A stretch of DNA of 64,000 bases from an uncultured Clostridia bacterium (GTDB taxonomy: Bacteria; Bacillota; Clostridia; Christensenellales; Borkfalkiaceae), in contig CALVPS010000002.1 of the NCBI GenBank assembly GCA_944354035.1, positions 1 through 64,000 on the forward strand, given 5' to 3'. Below the pieces are notes generated by a model, which was not told the DNA's origin, did not search any database, and worked only from the letters and a program-made list of their open reading frames with translations. A program made the translations under genes and the position numbers. Positions 22,808 through 25,271 of this stretch are shown in pieces (within the stretch, counting starts at the first letter, position 1; the number at the start of each line of letters is the position of its first letter).

Positions 22808-22874
22808 CAGCTGCATTTTTTTAACATTGCGCAGGCTGCGCGGCGTTTTGCAGGGTGCGGGCGCCGTGTTTTGT

Positions 22875-22903
22875 TTGACTTTTTCCGCCTGCCGTGTTAT
22901 GAT
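22875..22903 (+). promoter_or_regulatory. Promoter of candidate small RNA A
   Basis: TTGACT (22875-22880), 17-bp spacer and TATGAT (22898-22903). The ten bases from the -35 (TTGACTTTTT) are identical to those of the second small-RNA promoter about 590 bp downstream. Confidence 0.6.
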
Positions 22904-22908
22904 AGAGC

Positions 22909-22994
22909 CGCAAGAGGGGCGGCAAGCGTAACCCCTCCGCGCTCTTTCCCGTTTCGGTCAGGTTCTCACACGTTCGCCGAAACGGGCTTTTTTA
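22909..22994 (+). ncRNA. Candidate small RNA A with intrinsic terminator
   Basis: About 85 nt between a promoter and a perfect 10-bp terminator stem (CCCGTTTCGG at 948-957 with CCGAAACGGG) followed by T6. Contains an AGGGG/CCCCT hairpin. Directly after the -10, AGAGC pairs with GCTCT 33 nt further on; the second locus has a different sequence in the same places that still pairs. No ORF with a ribosome site. Not recognised as a known RNA family. Confidence 0.5.
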
Positions 22995-23044
22995 TGGGGC
23001 GCAGGCTGCACAGATGCACGGCGTTTCGCGTTCCATATGAATCG

Positions 23045-23239
23045 GTCGAATAAATATTCGCCGGCATAGCCGGTGGTTTTTCAGTTTACTTCTCCTGCGG
23101 CTCGTGCCGCCATAGGCGGGGTGTGCTGTAAGTCCTCATATTACCGGCTGCGCGCAAGCCGCGCCTGTGACGACCCGGCAGTCATGCAATTGTTACTTGT
23201 TACCCGTAAACGGGCCTTTTCTGCACTTAATTTTTTCAC
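23045..23239 (-). repeat. Structured, repeat-like element with two mini-ORFs (possible IS remnant)
   Basis: Read on the minus strand: a purine-rich lead-in with GGAG, a 32-codon frame from GTG (23239-23141), a 17-codon frame from ATG (23139-23086), then a hairpin (CGCCGGC/GCCGGTG, 23059-23075) followed by AT-rich DNA. Composition changes sharply at 23200, where a pyrimidine-rich tract (plus strand) begins. It looks like a dispersed non-autonomous element or the end of an IS200/IS605-type element, but no transposase is present, and family membership is a guess. Confidence 0.3.
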
Positions 23240-23374
23240 CTTTATCCTTGCTCCTCTTTCATTATTATTCTTTATTATTCTTTTTTACTTTTCTGTTTGT
23301 TTTTCTTCTATTTTTTACCTTACCGTTATTTCCGTCTCTCCTGTTCTTTTTTGTGCATCGGCAAAGCCTCTCTC

Positions 23375-23400
23375 AAACCCGCAACCGATCCGCGGGTTTT
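23375..23400 (+). terminator. Possible terminator, plus strand
   Basis: AAACCCGC (375-382) pairs with GCGGGTTT (392-399), with T4 at the end. It lies downstream of the pyrimidine-rich tract; what it would terminate is unclear. Confidence 0.4.
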
Positions 23401-23407
23401 GGGAAAC

Positions 23408-23439
23408 AAAAAAGGGCGACCCGCTCTGTCGGGTCGCTC
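23408..23439 (-). terminator. Intrinsic terminator, minus strand
   Basis: 8-bp stem GCGACCCG/CGGGTCGC (416-423, 430-437) with a T6 run on the minus strand. It probably stops read-through from the small minus-strand gene at 23724-24056. Confidence 0.65.
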
Positions 23440-23462
23440 CGTTAAAATAGCTGTTTTTCCTC

Positions 23463-23491
23463 TTGACTTTTTGCCCCGTTTGCGTTATACT
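23463..23491 (+). promoter_or_regulatory. Promoter of candidate small RNA B
   Basis: TTGACT (23463-23468), 17-bp spacer and TATACT (23486-23491); the same architecture as the promoter at 22875. Confidence 0.62.
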
Positions 23492-23497
23492 GTAAGC

Positions 23498-23577
23498 AAG
23501 CAGAGGGGGCGAGGCAATTGCCCCCGGCGCTTACCCTTTAACCGTTCCGGCTGTCAAGCAAGGGAGCGGTTTTTTTG
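23498..23577 (+). ncRNA. Candidate small RNA B with intrinsic terminator
   Basis: About 80 nt between promoter and terminator. Contains GGGGGC/GCCCCC hairpin around a GAGGCAATT loop, and a 9-bp terminator stem (AACCGTTCC with GGAGCGGTT) followed by T7. GTAAGC right after the -10 pairs with GCTTAC at 529-534, matching the AGAGC/GCTCT pair of RNA A. Shares AGAGGGG and GGCAA with RNA A. No coding potential seen. Confidence 0.55.
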
Positions 23578-23723
23578 TATCCGTCGAGAGTAATGGCCGC
23601 GCTCGAAAACTTTGACGGAGAAGAAGAGCCGTGCCGTGTCGGCGCATTGCCGTACAATACGCTGCGAGCCTCCGCACAATGCTTTTTGCGCGCGGAGCGC
23701 TCCCGTCGATCGGACCTGTCCGG

Positions 23724-24056
23724 TCACGGTTCCTTTACAAACCAAAGGATTTTGTAGGGCAGGCTGATGTCCGCTTTTTTGTCGATCGTATTGACGGAGA
23801 TGGCGATAAACTCTGCGCCTTCCGCTCTTTCAACATCCGTATATATGCTGCCCTTGTATTCCCGTCTTCCCGCCGCATGCCATTCTGTGTTCTGCGTGCG
23901 GCCCCGCAAAATGGCGGGGATGGGGAAATCGGCGTACCGACCGCGCCGCACGTCTTTGTAGCCCCGTAAAACCAATTCCTGCGCGATCGTGCGAACGCTG
24001 CCGCCGCGAGGCGTTTTTCCGTTGCGAAGGATCTCGTCCAGCTGTTCTGTCGTCAT
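23724..24056 (-). CDS. Hypothetical protein, 110 aa
   Basis: No family recognised. Soluble, no signal peptide or membrane helix; a mixed-charge protein with an Arg/Lys-rich first half (RGYKDVRRGRYAD) and a beta-rich second half ending in LPYKILWFVKEP. Of two in-frame ATGs (24062 and 24056), the second has the better distance (8 nt) from AGGAA. It sits alone between small RNA B and tRNA-Trp. The coding call rests on the open frame, the ribosome site and the gap it fills. Confidence 0.55.
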   Translation of the reverse strand: MTTEQLDEILRNGKTPRGGSVRTIAQELVLRGYKDVRRGRYADFPIPAILRGRTQNTEWHAAGRREYKGSIYTDVERAEGAEFIAISVNTIDKKADISLPYKILWFVKEP

Positions 24057-24172
24057 GGTCATATTTCCTGTTTTTTGGTTTATGATGTTATATAAGCGGC
24101 TTTGTTTGGGAGCCTTGCGGCAAAGCGATGGGGTGCAGTAAGCGGGTGCGGCGGCCGTATATGCGATTTTAT

Positions 24173-24201
24173 TTGACTTTCGGCCGCAAAACTGCTATCA
24201 T
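24173..24201 (+). promoter_or_regulatory. Orphan plus-strand promoter
   Basis: TTGACT (24173-24178), 17-bp spacer and TATCAT (24196-24201). Downstream is only about 80 nt before the convergent tRNA-Trp terminator; no gene is visible. Confidence 0.4.
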
Positions 24202-24272
24202 AAAAAGTAACAAAATGGGTGTTTTTTGGTGTTTGTTAGTATTTTTAGATGACATCGAACGCTATATCTTGT

Positions 24273-24316
24273 GTAAAAATACCGCCTGTACCACAATATT
24301 TTGCGATACAGGCGGT
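24273..24316 (-). terminator. tRNA-Trp terminator
   Basis: On the minus strand a perfect 10-bp stem (ACCGCCTGTA with TACAGGCGGT, loop 16 nt) followed by ATTTTT, starting 2 nt after the tRNA CCA end. Confidence 0.85.
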
Positions 24317-24317
24317 T

Positions 24318-24392
24318 TGGCAGGGGAGACGCGATTCGAACACGCAACCTACGGTTTTGGAGACCGCTACTCTACCGTTGAGCCACTCCCCT
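24318..24392 (-). tRNA. tRNA-Trp (anticodon CCA), CCA end encoded
   Basis: Cloverleaf on the minus strand: acceptor AGGGGAG/CTCCCCT, discriminator G, D-arm with GGCTCAACGGTAGAG, anticodon loop CTCCAAA giving CCA, T-arm GTTCGAATC. The 3' CCA is genomically encoded (24318-24320). Monocistronic, with its own promoter and terminator. Confidence 0.97.
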
Positions 24393-24405
24393 GTACACAA
24401 GGGAT

Positions 24406-24435
24406 ATTATATACCATATCCCGTCGGTTCGTCAA
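24406..24435 (-). promoter_or_regulatory. tRNA-Trp promoter
   Basis: Minus-strand TTGACG (430-435), 18-bp spacer and TATAAT (406-411), about 14 bp upstream of the tRNA 5' end. Confidence 0.7.
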
Positions 24436-24473
24436 CAAAAAACGGGTAAAAAAATACAAAAAGGAGCCATGTT

Positions 24474-25271
24474 ATGCAAAATCGTACCACGCTCGGCGTT
24501 ATCGGAGGCGGATTTATGGCGCACGCCATTGTTTCGGGCGCGCTTTCGTCAGGATTTCTTGCCGCGGGAGATATCCTGGTCAGTGAGCCCGATCTCGTTC
24601 GCAGAGACGGTTTTATAAAGCTCGGCGTGCGAGTCACGCAGGAAAATGCAGAGACGGCCGCGTGCGATTTTTTGCTGCTGGCCGTAAAGCCGCAGGTATT
24701 TGTTGAGGCGGTCGCATCGCTGCGGCATGCCGATCGGCTCCCCGTGGTGATCAGCATCATGGCCGGAAAAACCAGGCGTGCGATCCGCCAAAGCCTGCCG
24801 TCTGCCAAAATTGCGCGCGTCATGCCCAATCTGCCCTGCGCCGTCGGCGCGGGGATGGCGGGGATGGATACTTCGGAACTCTCCGGGGAGGAGCGGGTGT
24901 TCGTAGAGAGGCTCTTCCGTTCGGTCGGGCAGACGGCCGAGGTGGAGGAGGCGCTGCTGGACGCCGTGACCGGGATTTCGGGAAGCGGTCCCGCATATGT
25001 ATATTTGTTTCTCCGCGCGCTGATCCGCGCCGGCGTGGCGCACGGATTGACGGAGGAGCGCGCCAAACAGCTGGCGCTGCAGACGATCGCCGGCGGGGTG
25101 GAGATGGCGCGCCGCTCCGAACGATCGCCCGACGAACTGATCGCGGCGGTCTCCTCCAAGGGCGGGACGACGGTCGCGGCGCTTGAAAGTTTTCGGGAAG
25201 ACGATTTTGAAGGCAGTGTGCTGCGTGCGGTCGACGCCGCCGTATGCCGCGCAAAGGAACTTTCGGAATGA
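24474..25271 (+). CDS. proC: Pyrroline-5-carboxylate reductase
   Basis: Last step of proline synthesis (P5C to proline, NAD(P)H). 265 aa. Rossmann start GVIGGGFMAHAI, then the C-terminal signature around AVTGISGSGPAYVYLF and the SKGGTTVAAL segment. GGAG is 7 nt before ATG. Stop overlaps the rnhA start (ATGA). Confidence 0.95.
   Translation: MQNRTTLGVIGGGFMAHAIVSGALSSGFLAAGDILVSEPDLVRRDGFIKLGVRVTQENAETAACDFLLLAVKPQVFVEAVASLRHADRLPVVISIMAGKTRRAIRQSLPSAKIARVMPNLPCAVGAGMAGMDTSELSGEERVFVERLFRSVGQTAEVEEALLDAVTGISGSGPAYVYLFLRALIRAGVAHGLTEERAKQLALQTIAGGVEMARRSERSPDELIAAVSSKGGTTVAALESFREDDFEGSVLRAVDAAVCRAKELSE

What the first reader, a model, noticed from the sequence alone, without database searches (positions are those of the whole stretch)
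22875..23577. Two paralogous small-RNA loci with covarying stem
Two promoter-to-terminator units 590 bp apart share TTGACTTTTT promoters, the AGAGGGG...CCCC hairpin, a GGCAA motif and nearly equal distances between elements. The first stem is AGAGC/GCTCT in one and GTAAGC/GCTTAC in the other: different sequence, same pairing. That is compensatory change expected of a functional RNA. No known family was recognised.
Basis: partly seen in the sequence, partly recalled or inferred. Interest (0 to 1): 0.62.

Follow-up and report, generated by a model that had tools for sequence, protein, structure and literature searches.

The report
Solo copies of phage antisense RNA
The two small-RNA genes are real and belong to an undescribed RNA family; in prophages and viral contigs the same RNA gene lies antisense to the leader of an early gene operon, so the copies here are probably stand-alone antisense RNAs left behind by, or used against, such mobile elements.

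Summary
Observation confirmed: two promoter-hairpin-terminator units start at 22875 and 23463, and a third paralogue lies elsewhere in the genome. No Rfam family matches. A pattern scan plus covariance models found about 30 distinct members in Christensenellales (including Cand. Borkfalkia), other clostridial MAGs and viral contigs. The core hairpin and terminator covary.

Its 5' arms sit between the -10 box and the predicted start, so in these transcripts they are mostly not RNA. The shared TTGACTTTTT promoter is ordinary for this genus.

New result: the promoter spacer is complementary to the RNA's own hairpin loop (cluster-level permutation p = 2e-5; absent from ordinary promoters). That makes sense only on the opposite strand. 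In 12 of 32 members (1.9% of control promoters) that strand carries at least two of: a strong promoter, a small ORF ending at the sRNA terminator, and a gene starting just past the sRNA promoter. Several sit in prophage early regions. There the sRNA is a countertranscript of an early-gene leader that can form a pseudoknot before the ribosome-binding site, resembling IncI-alpha/IncB RNAI control.

The window copies lack that leader: solo antisense RNAs, probably trans-acting or relics. Expression is untested.

The parts
22875..22903 (+). sigma70-type promoter of sRNA copy 1 (TTGACT, 17-nt spacer, TATGAT, TG upstream of the -10)
   Evidence: conserved in orthologues L131, L194
22910..22993 (+). 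predicted sRNA copy 1, about 84 nt (start inferred 7 nt after the -10)
   Evidence: R3 89 bits; about 93% identical by eye to the L131 RNA; start not measured
22914..22937 (+). core hairpin of copy 1: GAGGGG / loop CGGCAAGCGTAA / CCCCTC
   Evidence: fold; covariation
22886..22894 (+). promoter-spacer segment CGCCTGCCG, complementary with one mismatch to loop CGGCAAGCG (22920-22928)
   Evidence: sequence; family statistics (copy 1 alone is not above background)
22904..22908 (+).
22948..22993 (+). intrinsic terminator of copy 1 (CCCGTTTCGG...CCGAAACGGG + T-run)
   Evidence: fold; same stem sequence in L131, L194
23463..23491 (+). sigma70-type promoter of sRNA copy 2 (TTGACT, 17-nt spacer, TATACT)
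   Evidence: orthologue L167
23498..23577 (+). predicted sRNA copy 2, about 80 nt (start inferred)
   Evidence: R3 71 bits
23505..23525 (+). core hairpin of copy 2: GGGGGCGA / GGCAA / TTGCCCCC
   Evidence: fold; covariation with copies 1 and 3
23498..23532 (+). outer stem that can lie in the transcript: AAGC 23498-23501 with GCTT 23529-23532
   Evidence: AAGC/GCTT kept in L167, L198, L262, L266
23540..23577 (+). intrinsic terminator of copy 2
   Evidence: fold

Best explanation
The two units are members of a new family of about 80-nt antisense RNAs that comes from mobile elements, mainly temperate phages of clostridia. In full-length members the RNA is read from one strand while, on the other strand, an early-operon leader is read through the same DNA. 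That leader carries a small ORF ending at the sRNA terminator hairpin, then the complement of the sRNA hairpin, whose loop can pair with a segment (the sRNA's promoter spacer read on the other strand) shortly before the ribosome-binding site of the next gene: a pseudoknot. The sRNA would bind the leader loop, block the pseudoknot and silence the early gene. In the window both units keep promoter, hairpin and terminator but have no leader promoter, small ORF or target gene on the other strand, so they are solo copies that could act only in trans on a related incoming or resident element, or are relics. Shown: family, structure, complementarities, enrichment and genomic context of the leader module. 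Inferred: transcription, pseudoknot formation, silencing, and any trans action of the window copies.
For: Three copies in the genome. Homologues in other genera, families and viral contigs with covarying hairpin and terminator. Spacer-loop complementarity: mean score 15.8 own versus 13.2 permuted at cluster level, p 2e-5; peaks at the loop position and is absent in 266 ordinary promoters. Later-found viral members L425, L421 and L360 also show it. Leader module: at least 2 of 3 features in 12/32 members versus 1.9% of 792 control promoters; all three in 6/32 versus 0.25%. Opposite-strand promoters of 11-12/12, mostly at +276 to +374, and small ORFs homologous to each other within two groups (E 1e-6 to 1e-11). 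Prophage context: L295 with serine recombinase, HTH+S24 repressor, siphovirus Gp157; L264 with Sak annealing protein and replication initiator; L259 with DnaC-like loader. Copy 1 matches the L131 RNA, whose locus has the opposite promoter and small ORF; copy 2 likewise matches L167.
Against: No expression data. Window copies 1 and 2 have no detectable leader module, and their spacer-loop pairing is at background (scores 14 and 13). L131 itself lacks a gene after its leader. Many members (20 of 32) are solos or lack a clear module, so the leader may not be the main function. Members are related, block boundaries were set by hand after the pattern was seen, and viral member L368 pairs no better than average. 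Pseudoknot formation was not computed.
Confidence: 0.6

Rival explanations
1. An ordinary chromosomal trans-acting sRNA family (like the paralogous csRNAs of streptococci) that regulates host mRNAs; the phage-linked members are secondary captures.
For: Most members found in chromosomes are solos in unrelated contexts such as downstream of rRNA (L129) or next to SecG (L292); promoter and terminator are kept without a leader.
Against: It does not explain spacer-loop complementarity or the enrichment of opposite-strand promoter, small ORF and gene.
Confidence: 0.25
2. The window units are decaying relics of integrated elements, still transcribed but without function.
For: The dinB-tRNA-Trp region is rearranged and lineage-specific; no leader module remains; only this species of 103 in its genus carries confident copies.
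Against: Promoter, hairpin and terminator are intact in all three copies, and the copy 1 RNA is about 93% identical to that of another genus while flanks are unrelated.
Confidence: 0.2
3. A DNA-level operator: a repressor binds inverted sites in the promoter spacer and the early transcribed region.
For: XRE repressor genes lie near several members.
Against: The distance between the two complementary segments varies continuously over about 29-38 nt (read by eye from the sequences), not in helical steps, and the sequence pair changes between members while staying complementary.
Confidence: 0.05

Closest known systems
Inc RNA / RNAI of I-complex, IncB and IncL/M plasmids (ColIb-P9 repZ control)
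   Same: Short antisense hairpin RNA against a leader; pseudoknot upstream of the target gene's ribosome-binding site; small upstream ORF (RepY-like); loop-loop contact (PMC8383071, PMC10724649; RepY detail from own knowledge)
   Different: Temperate phage and clostridial setting, no sequence family match; the small ORF lies upstream of the target hairpin; the pseudoknot is local; the antisense promoter itself encodes the pseudoknot partner; many solo copies
C4 antisense RNA of phages P1/P7 (and P4 CI RNA)
   Same: Phage immunity-region antisense RNA that blocks translation of an early gene through loop sequences (PMC12197685)
   Different: C4 is read in the same direction as its target operon (own knowledge), here the RNA has its own promoter on the opposite strand; no Rfam match
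csRNAs of streptococci
   Same: Paralogous about 80-nt two-hairpin RNAs with a pyrimidine-rich linker (own knowledge)
   Different: No sequence relation was found via Rfam; no CiaR-type promoter was looked for; antisense leader context in this family

Membership tests
Rfam 15 families (4227, including phage and plasmid antisense RNAs) | score above the family's gathering threshold | tested here: not met
   only tRNA, 5S and LSU rRNA reach threshold
IncB/IncI-alpha type antisense-pseudoknot control | antisense RNA read opposite to the leader of a gene | tested here: met
   for leader-bearing members only; not met for window copies
IncB/IncI-alpha type antisense-pseudoknot control | leader loop complementary to a segment before the ribosome-binding site | tested here: met
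   family-wide; not above background for window copies 1 and 2
IncB/IncI-alpha type antisense-pseudoknot control | translated leader ORF | tested here: inconclusive
   conserved small ORFs with SD; translation untested; position differs from RepY
IncB/IncI-alpha type antisense-pseudoknot control | target encodes a replication initiator | tested here: inconclusive
   L264 yes; others XRE or unknown proteins
C4 antisense RNA | RNA and target in the same transcript | tested here: not met
   sRNA and target gene lie on opposite strands

The most novel reading that the evidence does not exclude
Bacteria keep solo copies of a phage's own antisense RNA as a heritable RNA-based immunity against related temperate phages: the solo RNA binds the leader of the incoming early operon and stops its pseudoknot-dependent translation.
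Probability: 0.25. Interest if true: 0.8.

Novelty: new variant of a known kind. Interest (0 to 1): 0.6.

Why it matters
It adds an RNA family that Rfam does not hold, in clades for which the library search found almost no sRNA literature, and links small RNA genes in a gut bacterium to the early-gene switch of temperate phages. The promoter of the antisense RNA and the pseudoknot partner of its target are the same DNA, an economical design that can be tested directly. If solo copies act in trans, they would be a simple RNA form of superinfection immunity.

Tried and rejected
Direct DNA searches in the genus mainly find ordinary promoters. Model R1 in the genus: the hits outside the genome itself lie in genes or are bare hairpins without promoter. 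Candidate fourth copy G000:C1:66030 rejected: plain terminator hairpin, no promoter. Weak Rfam L20 leader hit (E 0.49) is noise. A transcript from further upstream that would include the spacer: no conserved upstream promoter. General effect of promoter composition: rejected by 266 control promoters. No similar DNA in annotated phages or plasmids by blastn. Most weak R3 hits (27-31 bits) were ordinary promoters.

Full report
Observation. Both units are present at the stated coordinates: promoter, hairpin, linker, terminator. A simple scan finds both promoters at 10/12 consensus. Both transcripts fold about 3.4 standard deviations below shuffles. Rfam at gathering and at permissive thresholds gives nothing. 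The TTGACTTTTT...TATACT promoter, however, is shared with ordinary genes of related species, so it does not by itself indicate paralogy.

Family. The genome holds a third copy at G000:C18:10740-10850, with the same 5' hairpin plan. A model of the three core hairpins (R1) finds no convincing member in 102 congeneric genomes. A promoter-plus-hairpin pattern in 85,000 genomes found true homologues: L131/L154 (Cand. Borkfalkia avistercoris and a chicken MAG; orthologue of copy 1), L167 (iMGMC-748 MAG; copy 2), L129 (copy 3), and L152 and L181 (roe-deer Clostridia). Models R2 and R3 extended this in the family and order. Members were accepted only if promoter, hairpin and usually terminator were visible by eye. 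Four more came from viral contigs. About 30 distinct sequences are now known. On eight of them the core hairpin and terminator pair in 90.8% of cells, with 21 doubly changed cells and 0/500 shuffles reaching this. The alignments were padded by hand with N to keep the arms in register, and the structure was named by me, which favours it.

In copy 1 the 5' arm AGAGC (22904-22908) follows the -10 box directly; in copy 2 GTAAGC (23492-23497) does the same. Transcription normally starts about 7 nt after the -10, so these arms should not be in the RNA (established promoter knowledge; the start was not measured). Orthologue L131 has ATAGGC instead of AGAGCC yet keeps the 3' arm. Using the discriminator alone, complementarity to the linker is marginal between clusters (p 0.05); with four more nucleotides it is significant (p 1.6e-4). 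In copy 2 and its relatives a shorter stem AAGC/GCTT can lie in the RNA.

An unexpected complementarity. In many members the promoter spacer is complementary to the loop of the RNA's own hairpin, with changing sequence: ATTCCGCCG/CGGCGGAAT in L181, GCTTGCT/AGCAAGC in L289, GCCTGCCG/CGGCAGGC in copy 3, CCGCCG/CGGCGG in L152. Permuting whole clusters gives p 2e-5. It is confined to the loop position and absent from 266 ordinary promoters. Copies 1 and 2 themselves score near background. Caveats: members are related, and blocks were drawn by hand after the pattern was noticed; R3 also includes a spacer and a loop consensus, though it does not reward their pairing.

What it means. The spacer is upstream of the start, so the pairing cannot be in the sRNA. 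Read on the other strand, many members show a Shine-Dalgarno and start codon 15-75 nt beyond the -35 box, a strong promoter some 150-390 nt on the other side, and a small ORF of 33-56 codons ending at the sRNA terminator hairpin. The small ORFs are homologous to one another in two groups. At least two of these three features occur in 12 of 32 members against 1.9% of 792 control promoters; all three in 6 of 32 against 0.25%. An example is L326: promoter TTGACAACGTTAAGCAAATGCTGTATACT at L326:1435-1463, leader through the sRNA region, ATG at 1637. On this leader strand the hairpin loop can pair with the segment before the Shine-Dalgarno: an H-type pseudoknot. Spacer-loop pairing is stronger in leader-bearing members than in solos (p 0.003 in a first test by divergent gene, with one doubtful ORF included; p 0.03 in the wider test).

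Context. L295 lies in a prophage-like region with serine recombinase, HTH-S24 repressor and siphovirus Gp157; L264 between a Sak annealing protein and a replication initiator; L259 near a DnaC-like helicase loader; L326 beside an XRE gene and a resolvase-like ORF (the last two judged by sequence, not by a profile). Viral contig members L425, L421, L368 and L360 show the small ORF and the divergent gene; L425 and L360 also a promoter of at least 11/12.

The window. Copies 1 and 2 and the third copy have no opposite promoter or small ORF and no credible gene there; the copy 3 'gene' flagged is a 31-codon ORF that I take for chance. They are solo antisense RNAs. Copy 1 is about 93% identical in its RNA, by eye, to the L131 RNA, whose locus has an opposite promoter and small ORF; copy 2 closely matches L167, likewise. 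Solo RNAs of this kind could silence a related element in trans or be relics. The data do not decide this.

Comparison. Inc RNA of ColIb-P9 blocks a pseudoknot upstream of the repZ ribosome-binding site (PMC8383071), and RNAI of I-complex plasmids acts through a kissing loop (PMC10724649). C4 RNA of P1/P7 is a phage immunity antisense RNA (PMC12197685). This family works like the first and sits where the second does, but matches neither in sequence, and several features differ. I file it as a new variant of antisense-RNA leader control, not as a member of either. I found no description of it in the library searched, which holds only open-licence papers.

Noticed in passing
window 22810-24474: In relatives dinB, tRNA-Trp (+) and proC are close neighbours; here tRNA-Trp is on the minus strand (24318-24392) and about 1.4 kb of lineage-specific DNA with both sRNAs separates it from dinB.
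   Followed up: partly
window 23055-23215; L003:1980-2150: A dispersed repeat (ccggcatagccggtgg ... cccgtaaacgggcc) lies between the two sRNAs and recurs, inverted, next to sRNA copy 3.
   Followed up: no
L343:5089-5200; L348:4968-5078: Two family members lie about 45-400 nt from CRISPR arrays with 66-bp period and cas2/cas1/cas9-like genes (genes recognised by eye).
   Followed up: partly
leaders of L425, L368, L295, L181, L260, L167, L152: Conserved small ORFs (33-56 codons), e.g. IIEYLKAKGWTDTDIIEMLVYLAKT; the two scanned have no match above a Pfam cut-off and none in PHROGs; could be leader peptides or small regulators.
   Followed up: partly
L274, L310, L319: A different recurrent unit (TTGAC promoter, GCCACCAGCCCCTGTA(A/T)GGGGAAGC..., terminator AACCGTCC..GGGCGGTT) that looks like another unannotated small RNA.
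   Followed up: no
window 23724-24062 (-): A 112-codon ORF next to copy 2 with no Pfam or PHROG match.
   Followed up: partly
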